Below, one piece after another: positions 170 to 15,706 of a stretch of DNA of 64,000 nucleotides. A model generated the notes under the pieces. It ran no database searches, was not told where the DNA came from, and was given only the letters and a program-made list of their open reading frames with translations. Source of the stretch: Candidatus Spongiihabitans thiooxidans. Its GTDB lineage: Bacteria > Pseudomonadota > Gammaproteobacteria > Arenicellales > Poriferihabitantaceae. The stretch is taken from positions 1 to 64,000 of the forward strand of contig LFLB01000025.1 in the NCBI GenBank assembly GCA_001543005.1, given 5' to 3'. How positions within the stretch are numbered: position 1 is the stretch's first letter; the number at the start of each line of letters is the position of its first letter. Position numbers and translations under genes: made by a program.

Positions 170-1498
170 TCAAAATTTCCCGGTGCCAGGAATCCAATCT
201 GTTCCCGCCAACGGCACCTTGGCCATCGCTGACGCTTCGATGGTCAAAGCCACCAGATCCTCTGGCTCAAGATTATGCACATCGGTCTTGCCGCATGCCC
301 TGGCCAGAGTCTGGGTTTCCAGCGTCAGGCAGCGTAAGTAATTAGCGACCCGTCGCCCGGCGATTTCGGGGTCAAGCCGAGCGCCCAGATCTGGATTCTG
401 GGTTGATATGCCTGCAGGGTCCTTACCATCCTGATAGTCGTCATAATAACCTGCGCTGGTCGCCAATTCATTATAGGCGGCTTCATGCTCAGGAGAATTA
501 TCACCCATCGCAATCAGCGCCGCCGTGCCAATGGAAACCGCATCGGCTCCGAGCGCCAAGGCTTTGGCGACATCGGCTCCAGAGCGGATGCCGCCGGAAA
601 CGATTAACTGCACCTTGCGATGCATGCCCATATCCTTTAGCGCTTCAACGGCAATTCGGGTCGCCGGCAAGGTTGGGATGCCCACATGCTCAATGAATAC
701 GTCCTGAGTCGCTGCAGTTCCGCCTTGCATACCATCAACCACCACCACATCCGCGCCCGCTTTAACCGCGAGCTGCACATCGAAAAAAGTTCGGGTCGCG
801 CCCACCTTGACATATATCGGCGCCTGCCAATCGGTCAGTTCACGCAATTCTTCGATCTTGATTTCCAAATCATCCGGGCCGGTCCAGTCGGGATGCCGAC
901 ACGCGCTACGCTGGTCAATCCCTTCGGGAAGATCACGCATAACGGCGACGCGTTTGCTGATTTTTTGTCCGAGCAACATGCCGCCGCCGCCTGGCTTTGC
1001 GCCCTGCCCGACCACGACTTCGATGGCATCGGCTTTACGCAAATCGTCAGGATTCATGCCATAACGCGAGGGCAGATACTGATACACCAAGATTCTGGAA
1101 TGACTCCGTTCCTCAGCGGTCATGCCGCCGTCACCGGTTGTGGTGCTGGTACCCACTTCGCTGGCGCCGCGCCCCAGTGCTTCCTTTGCCTGCATCGACA
1201 GCGCGCCAAAACTCATCCCGGCAATGGTAATTGGGGTCGAAATGGTAATCGGCTTTTTCGCATAGCGCGCACCCAACGTAACCGAGGTATCGCATTTCTC
1301 CCGATAGCCTTCTAACGGATAGCGCGACATGCTGGCGCCGAGAAAAAGCAAATCATCAAAAGTCGGGAGTGCACGCTTCGCGCCAAATCCCCGAATGTCG
1401 TAAATACCTTCGGTGGCGGCGCGCTGAATTTCACGGACGACCGGACGGCTAAAGGTTGCCGATTCGAGTAGCCATGACCTATCAATTTTTTCACTCAT
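170..1498 (-). CDS. Glutamate synthase-like FMN subunit (MgsC / GlxD family)
   Basis: A 442-aa stand-alone version of the FMN-binding synthase domain of glutamate synthase. Visible family features are the GQGAKPGGGG stretch (164-173), the VVVVDGMQGG beta-strand/loop (251-260), the SGGIRSG phosphate-binding loop (301-307) and GADAVSIGTAAL (317-328). In N-methylglutamate synthase (MgsABC) this subunit joins methylamine to glutamate; in the rhizobial GlxBCD set the exact reaction is less clear. It is the last gene of a three-gene minus-strand operon in the order amidotransferase, GXGXG subunit, FMN subunit, matching both named systems. The glutamine synthetase-like partner gene (gmaS or glnT) is not in the window, so MgsC and GlxD cannot be told apart here. 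Confidence 0.85.
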   Translation of the reverse strand: MSEKIDRSWLLESATFSRPVVREIQRAATEGIYDIRGFGAKRALPTFDDLLFLGASMSRYPLEGYREKCDTSVTLGARYAKKPITISTPITIAGMSFGALSMQAKEALGRGASEVGTSTTTGDGGMTAEERSHSRILVYQYLPSRYGMNPDDLRKADAIEVVVGQGAKPGGGGMLLGQKISKRVAVMRDLPEGIDQRSACRHPDWTGPDDLEIKIEELRELTDWQAPIYVKVGATRTFFDVQLAVKAGADVVVVDGMQGGTAATQDVFIEHVGIPTLPATRIAVEALKDMGMHRKVQLIVSGGIRSGADVAKALALGADAVSIGTAALIAMGDNSPEHEAAYNELATSAGYYDDYQDGKDPAGISTQNPDLGARLDPEIAGRRVANYLRCLTLETQTLARACGKTDVHNLEPEDLVALTIEASAMAKVPLAGTDWIPGTGKF

Positions 1499-1531
1499 AA
1501 TGCGCCCAAAAAAGGTAATGTCATAATGTGC

Positions 1532-2212
1532 CTAATACGCGCCAACATTGTCAATTTTAAAGTGATACAGTTCTCGGGCAGAACCATACCGCTTGAATTC
1601 ATCGACATCGACATCATCAATTGCCGCCTGTTTGAGCAGGTATGAAATCTCCTTTTTGTGTTCATCGTCCAACGGTTTTTCGATACAGTCGGTGCCGAGA
1701 CTTTTTACCGAGCCCCGTACATACAAACGCGCTTCATAAATCGAATCACCGAGCGCGTCACCGGCATCGCCGCAGACTATCAAGCATCCGGTTTGTGCCA
1801 TAAAGGCGCTCATGTGGCCGATGCTGCCTCGAACCACAATATCCACTCCTTTCATCGAAATCCCGCAGCGTGCGGCGGCATTCCCTTCCACAACCAGCAA
1901 ACCGCCGTGAGCAGTCGCGGCGCAATATTGCGAAGCATTGCCCTTGATTCGAACCTTACCAGACATCATGTTTTCCGCCAGCCCGGGGCCGGCGTTTCCG
2001 TTTACGGTGATATTGGCGTTTTTATTCATTCCCGCACAATAATAACCGACATGCCCATGTACGCTGACATCGCAGGAAAACATCGCGCCTGCAGCGACGT
2101 TATGCTTGCCGCCGGGATTGGCGACGACAAATGATTCGCCCTCGGCATCAGCCTGGTGCAAAGCAGAATTCAAATCCCGAACACCACTATCCTGCAAATC
2201 AAATTCTTGCAT
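1532..2212 (-). CDS. GXGXG-domain glutamate synthase-like subunit (MgsB / GlxC family)
   Basis: A 226-aa protein corresponding to the C-terminal right-handed beta-helix domain of glutamate synthase. Short glycine-rich turns recur about every 20 residues (NKNANITVNGNAG, GKVRIKGNAS, GGLLVVEGNAA, VDIVVRGSIG, GCLIVCGDAG, ARLYVRGSVKS), the GXGXG pattern. In the parent enzyme this domain is structural, holding the amidotransferase and FMN domains. Its last base pair coincides with the stop of the upstream amidotransferase gene, implying translational coupling, and the FMN subunit follows after 33 bp. The split three-subunit layout rather than one large GltB polypeptide supports assignment to the Mgs/Glx group. 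Confidence 0.85.
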   Translation of the reverse strand: MQEFDLQDSGVRDLNSALHQADAEGESFVVANPGGKHNVAAGAMFSCDVSVHGHVGYYCAGMNKNANITVNGNAGPGLAENMMSGKVRIKGNASQYCAATAHGGLLVVEGNAAARCGISMKGVDIVVRGSIGHMSAFMAQTGCLIVCGDAGDALGDSIYEARLYVRGSVKSLGTDCIEKPLDDEHKKEISYLLKQAAIDDVDVDEFKRYGSARELYHFKIDNVGAY

Positions 2213-3135
2213 TACGATCGCTCCCAGCTATAAATGGTAGCCGGTTCCGGCTCCCAGATGGTTGCATTTTCGCTACCGGGAAGTTGGGCGATGGCACGAT
2301 ACTCGGAAGCCATCGCCACCCAATCATCGGTTTCTGCCAGAATCGCAGGTTTGCAGGCAATCGGATCTCTTAGCACGGCAAAGCCATCTTTACTACCTAT
2401 CGCAAAGGTATAAAATCCATCCAGATCTTCCAGCGCCGCTTCCAACGCCTGGTTTAACGTTGCGCCTTGCCCTAGTCGCCAAGTCAAATATCCAGCCGCA
2501 ACCTCGCTATCGTTATCGGTGGTAAAACGTATTCCTTCGCCAATCAGCATTTCACGCAGATTATTGTGATTTGACAGGGAGCCGTTGTGCACTAAACAAA
2601 GGTCGCGCCCAGTAGAAAATGGATGGGAGTGTTCCGTTGTGACCGCACTCTCCGTCGCCATTCGGGTATGGCCGAGGGCATGAGTGCCAGCCATCAAGTT
2701 AAGACCGAATGTACGAATCACCTGATCTGGTGAACCTTTTTCTTTATAAATTTCAATTGTATATCCGATACTAGTAATCTTAATTCCAGGAATATTATTT
2801 TCAACCCAATTCAGTAGCGCCTCGGTTTCCGCCTCGTTGTCCACCTTGTTATCGAGTCGAGCAATCAAAATCCCATGATTTGCCACCGGCGAGAGCGTCG
2901 CTTTTCGGTCAATTTCGGCTTGAACACAGGTCTGTATGGCCTCCCAATCCGTATCAGGATCGCTGGATTGCAAGGTAATCTTTACTTGCCCTGGACTTAC
3001 CGGATTACGATATATAGCAAAACCGGCGCTATCCGGGCCTCTTTCGGTCATTTGCATCAACATATCAGACAACATGCCGCCTAAATTTGCCTCCAACTCA
3101 GGACGCTTGATATATAACCCAACTATTCCGCACAT
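2212..3135 (-). CDS. Class II glutamine amidotransferase subunit (MgsA / GlxB family)
   Basis: A 307-aa Ntn-type glutamine amidotransferase. After removal of Met1, Cys2 of MCGIVGLY is the catalytic nucleophile. RGPDSAGFA (about 32-40), the GHTRMATES substrate loop, HSHPF and the VHNGSLSNH motif are all visible. It would release ammonia from glutamine, or act as the amidotransferase-like half of an N-methylglutamate synthase. It is the first gene of the operon. Its start is only 4 bp from the end of an argE remnant on the same strand, so its upstream region is made from the decayed gene. No strong Shine-Dalgarno sequence is visible; GAG lies about 8 bases before the ATG. Confidence 0.87.
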   Translation of the reverse strand: MCGIVGLYIKRPELEANLGGMLSDMLMQMTERGPDSAGFAIYRNPVSPGQVKITLQSSDPDTDWEAIQTCVQAEIDRKATLSPVANHGILIARLDNKVDNEAETEALLNWVENNIPGIKITSIGYTIEIYKEKGSPDQVIRTFGLNLMAGTHALGHTRMATESAVTTEHSHPFSTGRDLCLVHNGSLSNHNNLREMLIGEGIRFTTDNDSEVAAGYLTWRLGQGATLNQALEAALEDLDGFYTFAIGSKDGFAVLRDPIACKPAILAETDDWVAMASEYRAIAQLPGSENATIWEPEPATIYSWERS

Positions 3136-3871: not shown

Positions 3872-4834
3872 ATGGAACAATTAACCGACCTAAAAGCCAT
3901 CCTGCATTCCAAACGCGCCAATATCTATTACCTGGAAAAATGCCGAGTGATGCAGAAGGATGGGCGCGTGCTGTATCTCACGGAAGCCAAAAACGAAAAC
4001 CAGTATTGGAATATTCCGATAGCCAATACCACCTGCTTGCTATTGGGAACCGGCACTTCCATCACCCAGGCCGCCATGCGTATGCTGGCCCAGGCCGGCG
4101 TGTTGGTCGGCTTCTGTGGCGGCGGCGGCACACCCCTGCTCATGGCCACCGAAATCGAATGGCTGTCGCCGCAAAGCGAATATCGCCCCACCGAATATGT
4201 CCAGTGCTGGATGAACTTCTGGTTTGACGAGCAAAAACGTCTGGCGGCGGCCAGGCAATTTCAAACGGCACGTATTCAGTTTATGCAAACAGTGTGGTCA
4301 AAAGACCGTGACTTGATAGCCGCAGGTTTTAATGGTCATGATGAAGATATAGCGTCTGTACTAAACAATACCCGTGCCAAAATCGAACAGGCGCAAAAAG
4401 TCAGCAAGTTATTTCAAATTGAAGCTGACCTCACCAAACGGCTTTACAAAATAGCCGCCAGCAGAACCAAACATGGCGATTTTGTGCGTGAAAGAGAATC
4501 GGTCGATACTGCCAATGCCTTTTTGAACCACGGCAATTATCTGGCCTATGGCTTGGCCGCGACCACGCTATGGGTGTTGGGCATCCCCCACGGCTTTGCC
4601 GTCATGCACGGGAAAACCCGCCGTGGCGCACTGGTGTTCGATGTGGCAGATTTAATAAAAGACACGCTGGTACTGCCCTGGTCATTTATCTGCGCCAAGG
4701 AAGGTGCTACCGAACAGGAATTTCGCCAGCAATGCCTGCAAGCGTTTACCGATCACAAAGCACTGGATTTCATGTTTGAGCAGGTAAAAACCATAGCCTT
4801 GCAACACCACGAAAAAAAAGGTGAAGCCAGATGA
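3872..4834 (+). CDS. cas1: Cas1, type I-F CRISPR integrase
   Basis: A 320-aa type I-F Cas1, the endonuclease-integrase that inserts new spacers at the leader-repeat junction together with Cas2. By family alignment the metal ligands are probably E184 (in FQIEADLTKR), H246 (in VMHGKTRRG) and D260 (in FDVADLIKD); the family's H-x13-D spacing is kept. The N-terminal beta domain contains GTGTSITQAAMRMLAQAGV (59-77), which positions the dimer. It is the first gene of the operon and overlaps cas2-3 by 4 bp (ATGA). Base composition is G+C-richer than the effector genes that follow, especially 4030-4270. The I-F assignment is supported by the fused cas2-cas3 neighbour and the repeat sequence. Confidence 0.95.
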   Translation: MEQLTDLKAILHSKRANIYYLEKCRVMQKDGRVLYLTEAKNENQYWNIPIANTTCLLLGTGTSITQAAMRMLAQAGVLVGFCGGGGTPLLMATEIEWLSPQSEYRPTEYVQCWMNFWFDEQKRLAAARQFQTARIQFMQTVWSKDRDLIAAGFNGHDEDIASVLNNTRAKIEQAQKVSKLFQIEADLTKRLYKIAASRTKHGDFVRERESVDTANAFLNHGNYLAYGLAATTLWVLGIPHGFAVMHGKTRRGALVFDVADLIKDTLVLPWSFICAKEGATEQEFRQQCLQAFTDHKALDFMFEQVKTIALQHHEKKGEAR

Positions 4835-7719
4835 TGGTAACCTTCGTGTCACAGTGCGAGAAAAAAGCCCTTAACCGAACCCGGCGGGTACTGGACAGCT
4901 TTGCCAACCGTATCGGTGATAATACTTGGCAAACCGTGATTACCAATGAGGGGTTGGGCGCAGTAAAAAAACTGCTGAGAAAAACCGCCAGTAAAAATAC
5001 TGCCGTGAGTTGTTTTTGGATACGCAGCAGGAGTCGAAGTGAGTTAGTTTGGATTGTTGGTAAAAGAGATAAGTTTAATAGCGAAGGCGTTGTGCCTGTA
5101 AACTATACCAATCAAGATAAATTTATAGGAGAAATAACAATGGAAAAAATATATGCAAATACTAAAAAGCAACCATTAGACCAGCATTTGTTTGCTGTTG
5201 GGTTAGTATCAAAAACTTTAATGCAAAAAATAGCACCGGTTGAAAAACTGCCAAAGCAGGCTTTTATTGCTGGTTGCTGGCATGATGTTGGCAAACTAGA
5301 CCCATCTTTTCAAGACTGGTTAGATAAAGAAATCAATAAGAAAAATCCAAACTTAATCGTGCCAGAAGAAGGCGTTCACAACGACACACAATCGGGTAGA
5401 TTTTCATGGCAAAAACACCCAAGACATAATGAAGTATCCACACTTTTGCATCATCTTTTAGCAGATGTGACAAACTTTGACAACCTTGAAAAAGATATTA
5501 TAAAACATGCTATTTTTTGGCATCACGCTAAACCAATTAGAAAAGATGAATTTAAAACATTAAGCATTATTTTTGATAAATTAAAAAATAATTTAGAAAA
5601 TTATCAACTATTATTTGCGAATACTAGGGCTTTGATAAACCAAGTCAATCAACTGAATGAAAATTATTTTTCAGAAAATGCAAACCTTATTGCACTCAAA
5701 ACATTGGATATTCCAACGGGTGATTTCGAATATGATTTAGAAAATACTCCGCATCCAAAATACAAAACATATAACAGTAAAACTCAAATTACAGATTACT
5801 CTAAGCAAATAACAATCAATGCAAAAAATAATCTAATCAGAACCGCTGTGGTAACTGCTGATAGATTGGTATCTAGTTTGAATAGTGATGAATTACAAGA
5901 ACATATTAATAATCGTAGTTTAGAATCTTTGTTGGATGAAGCATTATCAAAAGATAGAAATTTAAAATCACATATTAAAACTTGCTTAGATGGCTTTGAT
6001 AAAAAATATCCAAATAGTCAACGCAATAAAGAACAAGCAGATACAGCAAAATACTTGGCAGATGAAGAAGTTAAAATTGGAGTTTTAAGAGGTCCTGCAG
6101 GATGTGGTAAAACAAAAATTGCCTTAGAGTGGGCAAATAAAACCAACGCCAAAAAGATTTTATGGATTTGTCCGAGAGTGCAGATTTGTCAAAGTTTATT
6201 CAAAGATTTAACTTCAGAGTATCTGCCCGATGCAAAAATAGAAATTTATACTGGCGAATATAAGCAAATTCATCAGAGCGGGAAAATAGCAGATAATTCA
6301 GATAACAAGCCTTTTTCAGGCGATATTGTAATAACCACCATTGATCAAATGGTTAATAGTATTACTACCCATCGCCAAATAGATATATTGGCTATTTATA
6401 TGGACTCTCACGCCGTTTTTGATGAGTTTCACGAATATGTAAATATGTCCGGTTTAAATATGCTTTTTGCTGAACTTATAAAGTGCAAACAATTACAGCA
6501 AAACAATAACAAACTACCGAATACATTACTGGTATCAGCCACGCCGCATTATTTATTTGTCCAAGATTTTTTAGGCATAGATAAAGACGATATTAAAGGC
6601 ATTGATAGTTTTAACAGCAGGCCTTATAAAATTGAGTTTGCTGATTATTGTGAAAATTTAGAGAATGAAACAAACCCGCTTTATCAAAAACAAGAAACCA
6701 ATACTTTTGTGATTAGCAATACTGCAACCACAGCACAAAAAAGTTTTATTAATAATCAAGAGAACACAATTTTAACCCACGCTAAATTTAAGACAACGGA
6801 TAAGCAACTAATTTTTGATAAAGTCATCAATACTTTTAAGCAAGACGGCAGCAAAGATAAGGTTTTGCGAGCCGGTCCAATTATTCAATCTTCTTTAAAT
6901 ATTAGCGGTAAAAAGATGATAGGTGAGATGACTTGTGCTGAGAATTTTTTACAACGAATGGGTAGGTTAAATCGTTTTGCAGAACATGACAATGCAACTT
7001 ATACCATAGCAATAACCGAAGGAGTTAAAAAAGGCAAACAAAGTGGTAATTCTGCCAAATTTCTGGGGCGTATGTACATTTTACAAAGCGCGAAAGTATG
7101 GTTTGAATTTTTAGATGATAAATTAAAGGATGATCAAACCGTAACTATTAACGAGTTATATAAATGGTATCAAGAGTTTTACGATAGCGACAATCAGTTA
7201 ATTAAACAAGATTTAGAAGTTTCGTTAAAAGAAAGCGTTAAAAATATTAACAACAATATTTACGATCCATTAGAAATACCAAAAAAACAAAATAAGGAAA
7301 ATGTTAAAATCAAAAAATATTCATTAAGGGGTAATAATCGTTTTGTGCAAATGGCGGTGTGGAATATCAGCAATGGCAAAGAAGAGTTCCCGGATGAGTA
7401 TGCCTATGAAGAAAACGATGCAAAAGATAGCCTAACCATGCCAGTAGGACCTATTTGTGGTTATGGCGATAGCAATCAAGACTTATTGGCATTCATGGCT
7501 AAAAAACATCACAACATCAAAGATGATGCTAGAAAACCTTACAATAACAACGTGCTACTTAATGCGGCAAGAACACCAGAAACTCCCATCTATTTAAGTT
7601 ACACACCTGAAGATTTAAAGAAGGTGGAAGCACAATCCCATCCTTATGCGATATATTATGCTATCGGAAAAACCCAGCCCATTGGGGCTATTTCAATCAA
7701 TAAACTCAAAGGAGAGTAA
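4831..7719 (+). CDS. cas2-3: Cas2-Cas3 fusion, HD nuclease-helicase
   Basis: A 962-aa fusion diagnostic of type I-F. Residues 1 to about 83 are a Cas2 ferredoxin-like domain ([13 protein letters not shown]...). The HD nuclease domain follows: DQH (H119), WHDVGK (H151-D152) and later His at 196-199 and 226-232. The superfamily 2 helicase has motif I GPAGCGKT (421-428), motif II DEFH (531-534), motif III SAT (569-571) and motif [10 protein letters not shown] (708-715). All key residues are present, so nicking, unwinding and degradation of target DNA should be possible. It starts inside the cas1 stop. Composition falls sharply to AT-rich at about position 5040, close to the Cas2/HD boundary. It is somewhat shorter than many I-F1 Cas2-3 proteins. 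Confidence 0.95.
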
Positions 7720-7721
7720 TT

Positions 7722-8717
7722 ATGAAAAAAGTAACAGGTATCAAAAGTGTCGATTTTAAAATCTCCGCATTAGGTCATGGTGTGGTGAATTGGAATGGCC
7801 CGACCACCCTAACAGGCGATGACGGCAAAACGGTTGATAACCATACATTGCCAAAATTGCGAGGATATACAAATTTAACGGGCAAAATAAAAGAAGAAAG
7901 CGGTTACAAATACAAAAAAGAACCTACCGATATTGATTTCAAAAAAACACCGCTTTATATCAGCCAAAACTGTATTCGCCATCATTTGTTTAGAGACCAA
8001 GCGTTTGATCTTCACTATGCCAAAGAAAGAAGTTTGCAAGGTGTTTTGGCATCAATTACGGGTTTGGTTCGCGGTTTTGTTGTTCCATCCAGCCAATGTA
8101 AACGCACCAGTCCATTGTTAATGGAAGATTTTGTTGATGAATTGGGCAATGGCAATTTTGAGCAAATGGGCAGGTCTGGAACAAAAGACGATAAAGAAGA
8201 TGCAAAAACAGTGGACGAAAAAAAAGTAAAAGCCAAAAAAAGCACTTCATTTTTCTCAAAAACAACTTTTGGCGATACCAAATACACTTCTTATGGCTCA
8301 ATCAGTATCGAGCAATTGCAGTTTATTTCACTGGACAAAAAGTTTGATCGCTGTGCAATGGTCATTACAGATGGGCAAGGTGAAAAAGTCGCGCAAACCG
8401 TACAGGATTTTATTCAAACGCTCAATCCTGACCTAAGCCCACAAGCTGTCTTTCATGCAAACTATGTTCGTGGCGGTACTATTTTTGAAGAAGGCGAAAA
8501 TGGTATTTTGCTTAATAATGATGCTGTTACCGCATTAGTAGAACATACTTTACAAATGATACGCGAGCTTTCAATTCGTCAAGCAAAATCATATATGTAT
8601 GTTGATAGCGTAGAAGTTGATTATAACGATAGTCATAAAATGATGCGGATTAAACGGGGCGAATCAACAAATCCACAGCCTGACGGTGAGTATGCCGTTT
8701 ATTTTTATGCGAAATGA
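7722..8717 (+). CDS. cas7fv: Cas7fv, backbone subunit of type I-F2 Cascade
   Basis: A 331-aa protein recognised as the Cas7 variant of the minimal I-F2 (I-Fv) effector studied in Shewanella putrefaciens. Family stretches include the start [31 protein letters not shown] (16-35), [13 protein letters not shown] (79-91), [10 protein letters not shown] (124-133), [25 protein letters not shown] and [12 protein letters not shown]. Several copies would coat the crRNA spacer. Residues 153-173 are an unusually charged, lysine-rich stretch (TKDDKEDAK...KKVKAKK) that may be a lineage-specific insertion. It starts 2 bp after the cas2-3 stop with GGAGAG just upstream. It is not related to Csy3 of I-F1 beyond the general Cas7 fold. 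Confidence 0.92.
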
Positions 8718-8726
8718 GGAGGAGTT

Positions 8727-9740
8727 ATGAGAATAGATATTTCCTATGATTCTTGTTGGCGTAATTCTTTTTTAGCAGGAAGCAATAATGAGCCATTGCC
8801 TAAAAAAGGTCGTAAATTTATTGGTTCTATGACTGAATTAAAAAAAGAAGGCAATTTTAAAACCCAAGCGATAACTAATGATACGGTTATGGGTATTTTA
8901 AATAGGCTTATTGGCGACCAACGCAAACTTTATCAGTCCAGAGGTGGAGACGATTATTATTTCAAAAAAATGGAATCTAGCATTAGATTTAAAGACAAAT
9001 GCTATGAAACCAATGAAATGACTTATCTTAGAAATATATCAGGTAGCACCGATAAAAACTCTTTTACAGGCGCAATCAAAACTAACAATGCTGTATTTAA
9101 TTCTGATTATTCTGCTGAGTTTTGGGGTATTTTGGCACTTGATTTTGATGCCTTATGTAAGTTTATTGTCTCAAATGAAAAGGTATCATCAGTCATTCAA
9201 ACTGACCCAATAGCCATTATTTCAAAACTAGAGATTTTAAACAAAGCAAAAGCGGTTTTAAATGAGGGGATGGCAAACAAGGCGGTTGAGGAATTGCAAA
9301 AATCTTTTGAGGGCATTGAATATCTTAATAAAAAAGGCGAAATTATGCCGATTAGTTTATATTGCTCATCGCTTTATCTACAATTACAAAGGCTTTCTGA
9401 GCGATTTAATATGAATTCTGCCAAAACTAAGGCAGGTGGTATTAGCGGTATTTCTAAAAGAGGCTTTACCAAAAAAGATTTTATGGCGCGTTTTACCACG
9501 GGAGAGAAAAAGAAAATATGGGGCAATCCGTATATTCGCAAACAGAGAACAAAAGGAATTGGTGAAGAGACATCGCTTATGACCAAAGCCAGTGGAACAT
9601 TAGAGATTAATCTTAATATAAGTAGAGAAAGAGCTAAGGACATCCAAATAAAAATAGAAAATGCGGGGGTATCCAGTTTTTATCTTGGTAAAAAAGGCTT
9701 GGCTTATGTCACTCATATTGACACAAGAGAGGTTGAATAA
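8727..9740 (+). CDS. cas5fv: Cas5fv, 5'-handle and PAM-binding subunit of type I-F2 Cascade
   Basis: A 337-aa protein placed between cas7fv and cas6f, where the I-F2 locus carries Cas5fv. It starts [18 protein letters not shown] and contains the basic segment [15 protein letters not shown] and a C-terminal RAMP-like strand pair ([27 protein letters not shown]). In the Shewanella complex this subunit caps the crRNA 5' end and an inserted helical domain takes over PAM reading and strand displacement from the missing Cas8f. Here the central helical part is about 150-240. A good ribosome site (AGGAGG) precedes the ATG. It ends one base into cas6f. The assignment rests on position, length and remembered family sequence, not on catalytic residues. 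Confidence 0.88.
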
Positions 9741-10294
9741 TGAACTATTACATTGATGTGAAAATTAAACCTGATGCCGAAATGCGAGAAAATGTATTGC
9801 TTAACAAGGTTTATACGAAATTGCATAAAGCATTATTTACCCTGCAAGCCACTGATGTGGGGGTAAGTTTTCCAGAATATAAAATCAAATTAGGCAAAAC
9901 AATTCGCCTGCATTCAACACAAGATAGATTAACAGTGCTGTGCGAGATGAATTTTTTAGGTGGCTTGGCGGGTTATTGCCAATTAACGGATAGTTTGAAA
10001 ATCTCTGATGATGTTATGCATAGAACTATCTCAAGAGTGCAATCGAACATGACCGAGGCAAAACTCAGGCGTTTAATTAAACGAGGGTCAATCACACCTG
10101 AGCAAGCAAAACACTATAAAGCAAAAATGTTTTCTAAAGGTATTGATAATCCTTATTTTGAGTTAGAAAGCACCTCTAATAAAAACAAACATAGACGATA
10201 CATTGCATTTGGCGATATTGTTGATACACCGACATCAGGTCTGTTTGATTTTTTTGGTTTAAGCAAACAAGCCACCGTTCCCTGGTTTGAATAA
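9740..10294 (+). CDS. cas6f: Cas6f (Csy4), crRNA-processing endonuclease
   Basis: A 184-aa Csy4-type ribonuclease that cuts each repeat at the 3' base of its hairpin and stays bound as the head of the complex. His29 (KLHKALF) occupies the same position as the catalytic His29 of the Pseudomonas aeruginosa enzyme. An arginine-rich helix (MTEAKLRRLIKRGSI, about 104-118) matches the region that enters the RNA major groove, and KNKHRRYIAFGD resembles the C-terminal RNA-contacting loop. It overlaps cas5fv by one base and is the last cas gene, with the leader starting immediately after. The matching substrate is present in the array: a repeat with a CTGCC/GGCAG stem and GCACA loop. Confidence 0.95.
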   Translation: MNYYIDVKIKPDAEMRENVLLNKVYTKLHKALFTLQATDVGVSFPEYKIKLGKTIRLHSTQDRLTVLCEMNFLGGLAGYCQLTDSLKISDDVMHRTISRVQSNMTEAKLRRLIKRGSITPEQAKHYKAKMFSKGIDNPYFELESTSNKNKHRRYIAFGDIVDTPTSGLFDFFGLSKQATVPWFE

Positions 10295-10606
10295 TAAATC
10301 TGGATAAGTTTGATTTTAAATACAAGGAGTGGTTGGAATATAGAGTAAAAGAACACAAATGCTTAAAAAGGCAGAAATGAGTTCAAGGATAAAACGGGAG
10401 GAAATGTTGTTACCAATGAGAATTACTTACCGCATCTAAAAGCACATTGCTTGATTAGGTTAAAACCTATGTTTTAACCAAAAAAAGCCGATCCTTAAAA
10501 AGATAGATATAAATCAATGAGTTAAGCAACCACCAAAAAACATTGGTAAAATTGCCAAATACTTGCTAAGTATCTGTTGTAACTTGTATTTTTACCGATC
10601 GGTGCA
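10295..10606 (+). promoter_or_regulatory. CRISPR leader
   Basis: This 312-bp AT-rich, gene-free stretch lies between the cas6f stop and the first repeat. It holds the array promoter and the signals for spacer insertion. Positions 10458-10466 and 10471-10479 form a perfect 9-bp inverted repeat (GGTTAAAAC/GTTTTAACC, 4-nt loop), and TTGG..CCAA dyad sequence lies near 10544-10560. A weak promoter-like pair, TTGCTA and TGTATT, sits just before the first repeat. An IHF site is expected for type I-F leaders but could not be fixed by eye. Leader assignment follows from array orientation and adjacency to cas6f. Confidence 0.7.
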
Positions 10607-13600
10607 GTTCACTGCCGCACAGGCAGCTTAGAAAATTTCCGCAATTCACCCAGCCTGCGATTCTCGGTTCACTGCCGCACAGGCAGCTTAGAAAAAACAG
10701 GAGGGCTGTTAAGCCAAATAGAAGGAGTTCACTGCCGCACAGGCAGCTTAGAAATCGAAAAATCTAATCCCGATCTGATCAAAGACGGTTCACTGCCGCA
10801 CAGGCAGCTTAGAAAATCGCTATCGTATGTGTCTTTTTTCATAATTTGTTCACTGCCGCACAGGCAGCTTAGAAAATGGTCCCCCAGTCGTCGGCTGCCC
10901 AGGGTGGGTTCACTGCCGCACAGGCAGCTTAGAAAGCTTCGCAAATGAGTCAGCGACACTAAATTGTGTTCACTGCCGCACAGGCAGCTTAGAAAAGGGA
11001 TTAAACGGACGCAAACATGATTGCCACGTTCACTGCCGCACAGGCAGCTTAGAAAAAAATCACCTTCTTTTTCTGCCTTGAAATTTCGTTCACTGCCGCA
11101 CAGGCAGCTTAGAAAAATTTTAACTACTGAAACAGGTAAATAAGATGGTTCACTGCCGCACAGGCAGCTTAGAAAGAATGTTTTAGAAAGCGGCGCGTCG
11201 TCTGATAGTTCACTGCCGCACAGGCAGCTTAGAAATCTGACCGATGAGGAGATACAATCATTTGTGGGTTCACTGCCGCACAGGCAGCTTAGAAATCGCC
11301 GAGCGGGAGCGTATCGGGACAGATTTTGTTCACTGCCGCACAGGCAGCTTAGAAATTGAGCGATACCGTTGGTAGCCCTCCAGCATTGTTCACTGCCGCA
11401 CAGGCAGCTTAGAAACATTGGCAAGTGATGTAGTGGCATGAATCTACGTTCACTGCCGCACAGGCAGCTTAGAAAATGTTATTTCTTTCCCAGCATATCT
11501 GCCGACTGTTCACTGCCGCACAGGCAGCTTAGAAAGAGGGAAATTGTCGGCATCTTCTTCGATTGCGGTTCACTGCCGCACAGGCAGCTTAGAAACTCGT
11601 TCCAGCTCGTCTCTATCTTGCTCGCGTGTTCACTGCCGCACAGGCAGCTTAGAAAAGGATTTTATTCATGAACATAACTTTGGATGAGTTCACTGCCGCA
11701 CAGGCAGCTTAGAAATTGCCGTTTATCTCCTTGTTCCATTGGAACAGGTTCACTGCCGCACAGGCAGCTTAGAAAAATCGAAGTGCAAACGAAACTAAAA
11801 TTATATGGTTCACTGCCGCACAGGCAGCTTAGAAAGAGGAAAAATCCAATACCCTGTAACAAGTCTCGTTCACTGCCGCACAGGCAGCTTAGAAAGACGC
11901 AGGAATCGCATTTCTAATCAATCCCATGTTCACTGCCGCACAGGCAGCTTAGAAACGGCATTTATCACGTGAGATGGTCTTGTCCCGGTTCACTGCCGCA
12001 CAGGCAGCTTAGAAATTTGGATAAAGGTGGAGAAACCAAATTCGGCAGTTCACTGCCGCACAGGCAGCTTAGAAATAATTGTCGGGAATTCCCAGCTGTA
12101 AATTCTAGTTCACTGCCGCACAGGCAGCTTAGAAATGAAGCCGTGACTGGCAGTTTGCTATCCTTGGGTTCACTGCCGCACAGGCAGCTTAGAAAAGCAT
12201 ATCTGCCGACTCCAACAAAATTAGAACGTTCACTGCCGCACAGGCAGCTTAGAAAATCGGCGGCGCGCGTCACAATCAGCTGGAAAAGTTCACTGCCGCA
12301 CAGGCAGCTTAGAAAAGCCACCCAAGCCTTCCGCCGGCACGCAATCTGTTCACTGCCGCACAGGCAGCTTAGAAATCATGAGCGAGCTGATGAGCAACGA
12401 CTTGATTGTTCACTGCCGCACAGGCAGCTTAGAAAGTTTTGATAACCGCCTTCGCCGCGCCCGCCGGGTTCACTGCCGCACAGGCAGCTTAGAAATCAAC
12501 ATCGACGTTGCCAGCAACCAGGGAAATGTTCACTGCCGCACAGGCAGCTTAGAAAGTTAATTTCGACGCGCTGGACAATATTGTGTTGTTCACTGCCGCA
12601 CAGGCAGCTTAGAAAAGTTTGAAAATTTGCATTGGCACGATTTTTTGGTTCACTGCCGCACAGGCAGCTTAGAAAGAAACGGAATGTTGTGTTTGCCATT
12701 TTTCAATCGTTCACTGCCGCACAGGCAGCTTAGAAAATGGCGAATGATATTGCCATGGCGGGATTTAAGTTCACTGCCGCACAGGCAGCTTAGAAAACAA
12801 AAATTATGTTCTGGGTTCTAATTTTGTTGTTCACTGCCGCACAGGCAGCTTAGAAAGAGAAAGAACACGGCATATGCATCAAATGGGGGTTCACTGCCGC
12901 ACAGGCAGCTTAGAAACATCGAGCAACAAATTGCTCAAAACATTTTCCTGTTCACTGCCGCACAGGCAGCTTAGAAAGAGAAAGTAAAAATTTCTGGCGC
13001 GATGGTGCGGTTCACTGCCGCACAGGCAGCTTAGAAAATCAACAAAAGCATTTTCGGTTTTCCCGGCGCGTTCACTGCCGCACAGGCAGCTTAGAAAAGC
13101 CCCCAATTTCTGATCATCATTGTTCTGCCGTTCACTGCCGCACAGGCAGCTTAGAAAAAAAGCTTTTTTCAAGGGATGCTTTTGCCAGAGTTCACTGCCG
13201 CACAGGCAGCTTAGAAACATGATCGCTGCATGCGGCACCCAGTCATCTCGTTCACTGCCGCACAGGCAGCTTAGAAAAGTCGATCGGCCGTTGCCGATGA
13301 TTTTCCGGGGTTCACTGCCGCACAGGCAGCTTAGAAAAGGAATCAAGGGCCAGGACTCAACAAATCATTGTTCACTGCCGCACAGGCAGCTTAGAAATAA
13401 TCCGATTTTGTCTTTAAAATCGACATATCGTTCACTGCCGCACAGGCAGCTTAGAAAGCAATCAAAAAGATGCTGCGCGATTTTTGCAAGTTCACTGCCG
13501 CACAGGCAGCTTAGAAAATAAGCATCATTTTGTCTGTATCTATTTCCTCGTTCACTGCCGCACAGGCAGCTTAGAAATCGCCGTTCGCGCCCGGCGCCGC

Positions 13601-15256
13601 TGGCAAATCGTTCACTGCCGCACAGGCAGCTTAGAAAAGTTTTTTCTTTTTCAATTTGCAGTGCGGCTCGTTCACTGCCGCACAGGCAGCTTAGAAAAGA
13701 TCGCGATCAGCAATTCGGGATCGGAAAAAGTTCACTGCCGCACAGGCAGCTTAGAAAAATGTCAGAGAGTCAAAAATAGCCAGACGCCGGTTCACTGCCG
13801 CACAGGCAGCTTAGAAAGACAGAATTAATTCCGACGGCTAATTTGGACCGTTCACTGCCGCACAGGCAGCTTAGAAACATATTTGAAATGCAAGCGGGTC
13901 TCTGGGTTCGTTCACTGCCGCACAGGCAGCTTAGAAATGAATCGAAATCTGAAGAAATTGTTGTTATGAGTTCACTGCCGCACAGGCAGCTTAGAAAACA
14001 ATCACAATCCCTAAATTCTCGTTTTTTCAGTTCACTGCCGCACAGGCAGCTTAGAAACAATTCCAGCCGGACCGACAGCACATTTTCAGGTTCACTGCCG
14101 CACAGGCAGCTTAGAAAGTTGATTATGGCACTGGCGCGTTAAGCGCGTCGTTCACTGCCGCACAGGCAGCTTAGAAAAAAACCGACTCAAATTCTGCATC
14201 GTCGAAGGCGTTCACTGCCGCACAGGCAGCTTAGAAATAATTCCACTCGGACCGACAGCACCTTTTCAGTTCACTGCCGCACAGGCAGCTTAGAAAGTCG
14301 AGGGTAACAGTTGTTTCCCGCTCCGGGCGTTCACTGCCGCACAGGCAGCTTAGAAACAGAATTCCGGTCGGAATCTGAGCGACGACAGGTTCACTGCCGC
14401 ACAGGCAGCTTAGAAACAGGCAATTCCGCGAGAGCGATATTATGATATGTTCACTGCCGCACAGGCAGCTTAGAAATCGATTATTGCGAATTGACCACGC
14501 ATCGATGTGTTCACTGCCGCACAGGCAGCTTAGAAAGACTCAATCAAAGTCGAGCAATCTGCACACGCGTTCACTGCCGCACAGGCAGCTTAGAAAAATC
14601 GCTGCCACATCAGTCGCGCCCGACGACGGTTCACTGCCGCACAGGCAGCTTAGAAATGACATCAAGGGCGCGATCCGCACTCTTGACGGTTCACTGCCGC
14701 ACAGGCAGCTTAGAAAATATACATAGCCAGCCCGCCTGCGCCGGTCTGGTTCACTGCCGCACAGGCAGCTTAGAAATCGCCCGCGGCGCGCAAGGTCATC
14801 TGTAATAAGTTCACTGCCGCACAGGCAGCTTAGAAAAAAAATAGAGAAAAATAAATTATGTTATTAAAGTTCACTGCCGCACAGGCAGCTTAGAAACAAG
14901 TATGCCCCAGCGCCCCAGCTTAATATTCGTTCACTGCCGCACAGGCAGCTTAGAAAGCCAGGCGCGCAAGGAATTCGGGGATTTCCGGGTTCACTGCCGC
15001 ACAGGCAGCTTAGAAATCGCCCGCGGCGCGCAAGGTCATCTGTAATAAGTTCACTGCCGCACAGGCAGCTTAGAAAAAAAATAGAGAAAAATAAATTATG
15101 TTATTAAAGTTCACTGCCGCACAGGCAGCTTAGAAACAAGTATGCCCCAGCGCCCCAGCTTAATATTCGTTCACTGCCGCACAGGCAGCTTAGAAAGCCA
15201 GGCGCGCAAGGAATTCGGGGATTTCCGGGTTCACTGCCGCACAGGCAGCTTAGAAA
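10607..15256 (+). CRISPR. Type I-F2 CRISPR array, 78 repeats and 77 spacers
   Basis: The 28-bp repeat begins GTTCACTGCC and ends CTTAGAAA; its stem is CTGCC/GGCAG around GCACA, a type I-F repeat read in the plus direction. I counted 78 repeats, 77 spacers. Spacers are 32 bp except 33 bp for spacers 3, 35 and 39 and 31 bp for spacer 61. No repeat variant was seen, including the last one. The leader is at the left, so spacer 1 (10635) is the newest. Spacers 70-73 recur exactly as 74-77, leaving 73 distinct spacers. Spacers 15 and 27 overlap by 16 nt, and 58 and 61 are near copies. Long reading frames across the array arise because the 60-bp period is divisible by three and are not genes. Confidence 0.99.
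14777..15256 (+). repeat. 240-bp exact tandem duplication at the old end of the array
   Basis: Positions 14777-15016 (four spacer-repeat units) are repeated without a visible difference at 15017-15256. The copied spacers begin TCGCCCGCGG, AAAAATAGAG, CAAGTATGCC and GCCAGGCGCG. Recombination or slippage between repeats would produce it. It lies at the leader-distal end, so it is not recent acquisition. A collapse or expansion error in assembly is the alternative. Confidence 0.95.
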
Positions 15257-15323
15257 TTCGCTTTCTTGCGCATAACTAACAACAGAGCGTTTGTGGATTC
15301 AACCTTGAAGTACAACTTCCCCG

Positions 15324-15706
<383 letters not shown>

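What the first reader, a model, noticed from the sequence alone, without database searches (positions are those of the whole stretch)
11475..12226. Spacers 15 and 27 overlap by 16 nt and reveal a CC PAM
Seen: the last 16 bases of spacer 15 (11475-11506), AGCATATCTGCCGACT, equal the first 16 of spacer 27 (12195-12226), so both come from one strand of one target, 16 nt apart. In spacer 15 the two bases directly before this overlap are CC. Known: type I-F protospacers are preceded by CC on the spacer-matching strand. The array thus gives its own PAM evidence and a 48-bp piece of the invader. Repeated sampling of one target is consistent with primed acquisition.
Basis: partly seen in the sequence, partly recalled or inferred. 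Interest (0 to 1): 0.65.

Follow-up and report, generated by a model that had tools for sequence, protein, structure and literature searches.

The report
Overlapping CRISPR spacers, one invader site
A bacterium's compact type I-F2 CRISPR memory has filed three overlapping snippets of the same short stretch of an unknown invader, and the bases exposed by the overlap fit the CC tag already known for this kind of system, so it is a tidy but ordinary record of repeated sampling.

Summary
The last 16 nt of spacer 15 equal the first 16 of spacer 27, and CC (within TTTCCC) directly precedes spacer 27. Spacer 37 (12797-12828) overlaps the other end of spacer 27 by 14 nt on the opposite strand, giving a 66-bp piece of one target. 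Shuffled arrays gave no such suffix-prefix matches. The cas genes are type I-F2 (I-Fv), for which this PAM (CC on the spacer-matching strand, GG on the target strand) is already shown experimentally in Shewanella putrefaciens. A second flank supports CC: a type II-B spacer in the same genome overlaps spacer 73 and shows CC just before it, though on a diverged homologue. Two CC flanks by chance: about 0.3-0.5%. The invader was not found in phages, plasmids, viral contigs or about 470 related genomes, so the PAMs of spacers 15 and 37 remain unknown. Primed acquisition is possible but not shown: the three spacers lie 9-11 spacers apart, and sampling one phage-sized invader gives some overlaps anyway. 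The same genome carries I-C, II-B and II-C systems, and some of their spacers overlap too. Ordinary; interest low.

The parts
3872..4834 (+). cas1 (Cas1fv)
   Evidence: PADLOC Cas1fv E 4.6e-182
4831..7719 (+). cas2-3 fusion (Cas3fv; Cas2 domain at N-terminus)
   Evidence: PADLOC Cas3fv E 0; Pfam Cas3_I-F_Cas2
7722..8717 (+). cas7fv backbone subunit
   Evidence: PADLOC Cas7fv E 1.1e-178
8727..9740 (+). cas5fv with helical domain (takes the place of Cas8f)
   Evidence: Pfam Cas5fv_helical E 7.8e-67; solved S. putrefaciens Cas5fv 5o6u E 9e-136
9740..10294 (+). cas6f
   Evidence: Pfam Cas_Csy4 E 5.1e-53
10295..10606 (+). presumed AT-rich leader (68% AT), promoter end of the array
   Evidence: position between cas6f and first repeat, composition; no sigma-70-like site found; inferred
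10607..15256 (+). CRISPR array, 78 perfect 28-nt repeats, 77 spacers (73 distinct)
11476..11507 (+). spacer 15 = bases 1-32 of the 66-bp target contig
12196..12227 (+). spacer 27 = bases 17-48 of the contig; preceded in the target by CC
14957..14988 (+). spacer 73 (repeated as spacer 77 at 15197-15228); a type II-B spacer of the same genome holds a diverged homologue preceded by CC
12076..12107 (+). spacer 25; 21 nt shared with a type I-C spacer of the same genome
14058..14089 (+). spacer 58; 27 of 31 identical to spacer 61 (14238-14268): the same site taken from two diverged targets

Best explanation
This is an ordinary, probably functional type I-F2 (I-Fv) CRISPR array that took at least three spacers, on separate occasions, from one 66-bp stretch of one invader. 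Spacer 37 entered first, then 27, then 15, because new spacers enter at the leader end next to cas6f (inferred). Cas1:Cas2-3 picked prespacers next to CC on the spacer-matching strand (GG on the target strand), the known PAM of I-F and I-Fv. The overlap exposes the flank of spacer 27 and shows CC there. Spacer 37 most likely comes from the opposite strand with its own PAM outside the contig. What caused the repeat sampling (priming or interference-driven acquisition, an acquisition hot spot, or repeated infection) is not settled. Shown: the overlaps, the CC, the cas genes. Inferred: order of entry, PAM use, one invader genotype.
For: Exact 16-nt and 14-nt suffix-prefix overlaps, absent from shuffles. 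CC directly before spacer 27, and the CC of a CCC run nearest the spacer is the one used, which fits the preference reported for I-F by Staals et al. (PMC5059440). CC directly before the spacer-73 homologue in a II-B spacer of the same genome; both by chance 0.3-0.5%. Cas proteins match I-Fv models end to end. The GG target-strand PAM was shown by conjugation assays in S. putrefaciens CN-32 (PMC4605320) and from 351 new spacers in P. atrosepticum I-F (PMC4117759). 30 of 73 spacers begin with A, as reported for I-F (PMC5059440).
Against: The target itself was not found, so the flanks of spacers 15 and 37 are unseen. Only two 5' flanks support CC, and one is from a diverged homologue (24 of 29 identical). 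No transcription, interference or acquisition data exist for this organism.
Confidence: 0.88

Rival explanations
1. Primed or interference-driven acquisition: an older spacer (37, then 27) guided the effector to the invader and Cas1:Cas2-3 took the next spacers close by.
For: Priming in I-F clusters new spacers near the primed site on both strands (PMC4117759; PMC5059440). Three tiles in 66 bp on both strands fit clustering.
Against: The tiles are 11 and 9 spacers apart in the array, not a burst. If spacer 37 is in the normal orientation, spacer 27 lies on its PAM-distal side, not in the favoured 5' non-primed-strand quadrant. One 40-kb invader sampled uniformly by all 73 spacers gives 2.7 overlaps on average and a chain of three in 8% of runs.
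Confidence: 0.4
2. Plain repeated sampling: the same invader, or a hot spot in it, was met on several occasions and the overlap is a by-product of many spacers from few invaders.
For: Simulation; wide separation of the tiles in the array; other systems of the same genome also hold spacers overlapping one another and these, which fits a small set of common invaders.
Against: A chain of three is uncommon under uniform sampling if the invader supplied only half of the spacers (1% for 40 kb).
Confidence: 0.5
3. Spacer 37 is a flipped spacer: it was cut next to the CC at contig bases 33-34 on the same strand as spacers 15 and 27 but inserted backwards, so all three share one strand with CC.
For: CC stands directly before the reverse complement of spacer 37; flipped I-F spacers with exactly this signature are reported (PMC5059440).
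Against: Flips are under 0.5% of I-F acquisitions, while CC falls at a given place in the contig 9% of the time; posterior 5-8% with that prior. Base preferences at the spacer ends do not separate the two orientations (composition, judged by hand).
Confidence: 0.08
4. The shared 16-mer is a conserved motif in unrelated targets, or chance.
For: Other pairs (58/61, 73 with a II-B spacer) are diverged homologues, so sampling of relatives does happen here.
Against: No mismatch in 16 plus 14 overlapping bases, strict suffix-prefix geometry, never seen in shuffles.
Confidence: 0.03

Closest known systems
Type I-Fv (I-F2) CRISPR-Cas of Shewanella putrefaciens CN-32 (PMC4605320)
   Same: Same five genes (cas1, cas2-3, cas7fv, cas5fv, cas6f), I-F-type repeats, one large array (81 spacers there, 77 here), GG target-strand PAM equal to CC on the spacer strand.
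   Different: Different organism; here the PAM is inferred from overlapping spacers only, and three further CRISPR systems share the genome.
Type I-F acquisition in Pectobacterium atrosepticum (PMC4117759, PMC5059440)
   Same: GG (CC) PAM, 32-nt spacers with some of 33, A/T at the first base, clustered acquisition from both strands.
   Different: Those are measured acquisitions with a Cas8f-containing system; here only a natural array is read.

Membership tests
Type I-F2 (I-Fv) CRISPR-Cas | Cas1 and a Cas2-Cas3 fusion of I-F type | tested here: met
   Cas1fv 4.6e-182, Cas3fv E 0, N-terminal Cas2 domain
Type I-F2 (I-Fv) CRISPR-Cas | Cas5fv with helical domain and Cas7fv; no Cas8f large subunit in the operon | tested here: met
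   the five abutting ORFs from 3872 to 10294 leave no room for another gene
Type I-F2 (I-Fv) CRISPR-Cas | Cas6f and 28-nt hairpin repeats ending in an AGAAA handle | tested here: met
   Csy4 E 5.1e-53; repeat
Type I-F2 (I-Fv) CRISPR-Cas | CC 5' of the protospacer on the spacer strand (GG on the target strand) | tested here: inconclusive
   CC at both 5' flanks that can be read (spacer 27; spacer 73 via a homologue); the target itself was not found
Type I-F2 (I-Fv) CRISPR-Cas | Active interference and spacer uptake | not testable with these tools
   Needs experiment
Primed acquisition of these spacers | New spacers gathered close to, and with strand bias around, an older protospacer | tested here: inconclusive
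   Clustered, but not adjacent in the array, and not above what heavy sampling of one invader can give

The most novel reading that the evidence does not exclude
Four CRISPR systems in one genome (I-F2, I-C, II-B, II-C) share an invader record because one system's DNA breakdown products feed spacer uptake by another. Spacers of the I-F2, I-C and II-B arrays then overlap more than independent sampling would give.
Probability: 0.06. Interest if true: 0.6.

Novelty: new member of a known kind. Interest (0 to 1): 0.2.

Why it matters
It shows that overlapping spacers within and between arrays of one genome can give PAM flanks and short pieces of an invader that no database searched here holds. The PAM it gives is already known, so it confirms rather than adds.

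Tried and rejected
Target search, all negative. The 66-bp contig by blastn in phages gave only 18-23-nt chance hits at E 6. The 21-aa reverse-strand reading KNYVLGSNFVGVGRYAGKEIT by tblastn in phages and plasmids gave nothing, and none of three readings of 20-21 aa matched PHROGs or Pfam. Eight exact or degenerate scans of IMG/VR (two of them for other spacers) and two of GTDB contigs gave nothing or chance matches only. Relatives, order and class genomes gave no target; one 24-nt hit, 96% identical, in G181 lies in a 512-aa ORF that looks Fic-like by eye and is 38 of 66 identical overall, judged chance. The whole array against phages and plasmids hit other I-F arrays through the repeats plus weak matches, with no protospacer identified. 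Merged I-C/II-B and spacer-25/I-C pieces gave no convincing phage. The I-F-like array of relative G020 shares no 13-mer with these spacers. A literature search for overlapping spacers gave no direct precedent in the one paper opened for it.

Full report
Observation. The window holds one CRISPR array of 78 perfect 28-nt repeats (10607-15256, + strand) with 77 spacers, 73 of them distinct; the own genome has no other copy of this repeat at up to 3 mismatches. The last 16 nt of spacer 15 (11476-11507) are the first 16 nt of spacer 27 (12196-12227), and CC precedes them in spacer 15.

Third tile. A full all-against-all comparison shows a second exact overlap: the last 14 nt of spacer 27 are the reverse complement of the last 14 nt of spacer 37 (12797-12828). 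The three spacers tile 66 bp: ATGTTATTTCTTTCCCAGCATATCTGCCGACTCCAACAAAATTAGAACCCAGAACATAATTTTTGT, with spacer 15 at 1-32, spacer 27 at 17-48 and spacer 37 reversed at 35-66. In 500 Markov shuffles of the 73 spacers the longest shared word was 15; exact suffix-prefix overlaps of 13 or more occurred in none of 200 shuffled sets, against two observed. This is not chance.

System. The operon 3872-10294 encodes Cas1fv, Cas2-3 (Cas3fv), Cas7fv, Cas5fv and Cas6f. Cas5fv aligns along its length with the solved S. putrefaciens Cas5fv (5o6u, E 9e-136). There is no Cas8f. This is type I-F2 (I-Fv), for which a GG PAM on the target strand, CC on the spacer strand, is experimentally required for interference (PMC4605320); I-F acquisition uses the same motif (PMC4117759).

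PAM evidence here. CC is 5.2% of dinucleotides in these spacers and 6 of 65 in the contig, so the single CC before spacer 27 is weak by itself. The genome carries three more CRISPR systems: C2 (array with I-C-like repeats beside a Cas1), C3 (Cas9b, Cas1, Cas4: II-B) and C34 (Cas9 and Cas1: type II, probably II-C). One II-B spacer (L086:14653-14686) overlaps a diverged homologue of spacer 73 (24 of 29 identical) and shows GCGCC directly before its start. So both readable 5' flanks are CC; chance 0.3-0.5%. In the CCC run before spacer 27 the CC next to the spacer was used, as Staals et al. report (PMC5059440). Spacers start with A in 30 of 73 cases, the reported I-F preference.

Orientation of spacer 37. 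CC also stands directly before the reverse complement of spacer 37, the signature of a flipped spacer (PMC5059440). With their flip rate under 0.5% the posterior is only 5-8%; the likelier reading is a normal opposite-strand spacer with its PAM just outside the contig.

Priming. Clustering fits priming, but so does plain resampling. The tiles are separated by 11 and 9 other spacers, so they were not taken in one burst. Simulated uniform sampling of a single 40-kb invader by 73 spacers gives 2.7 overlaps on average and a chain of three in 8% of runs; if the invader supplied only half the spacers, 0.7 and 1%. The simulation uses uniform positions and ignores PAM placement. Priming is neither shown nor excluded.

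Shared memory. Spacer 25 shares 21 nt with an I-C spacer. I-C and II-B spacers overlap each other (24 nt exact for I-C 45 and II-B 18; diverged for I-C 39 and II-B 13; 13 nt for I-C 31 and II-B 25, borderline by itself), and spacers 58 and 61 are diverged versions of one site. For spacers 58/61 and 73 the differences fit coding sequence when read by eye (inferred). The simplest reading is that a few related invaders are common in this host's surroundings.

Target. Not found in any collection searched (details under tried and rejected). The reverse-strand frame KNYVLGSNFVGVGRYAGKEIT is open throughout and is a plausible protein, but matches nothing.

Verdict. Ordinary.

Noticed in passing
14749-14988 and 14989-15228: Spacers 70-73 with their repeats are duplicated exactly as spacers 74-77: a 240-bp tandem duplication at the leader-distal end.
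   Followed up: partly
14058-14089 and 14238-14268: Spacers 58 and 61 are the same site from two diverged targets (27 of 31 identical), with differences that fit a coding frame.
   Followed up: partly
L085:4917-8576, L086:6409-16550, L087:5942-11860: The same genome has three more CRISPR systems, I-C (judged from its repeats), II-B (Cas9b with Cas4) and another type II, and spacers of the I-C and II-B arrays overlap each other and the I-F2 spacers.
   Followed up: partly
L085:4951-5051: The first two spacers of the I-C array, in locus orientation, are identical.
   Followed up: no
15257-15560: Just past the last repeat the sequence looks by eye like part of an IS30-like transposase gene, so a mobile element may border the array.
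   Followed up: no
170-3135: Three minus-strand ORFs look by eye like separate glutamate-synthase-like parts (FMN-binding, GXGXG, amidotransferase), as in N-methylglutamate synthase; not tested.
   Followed up: no
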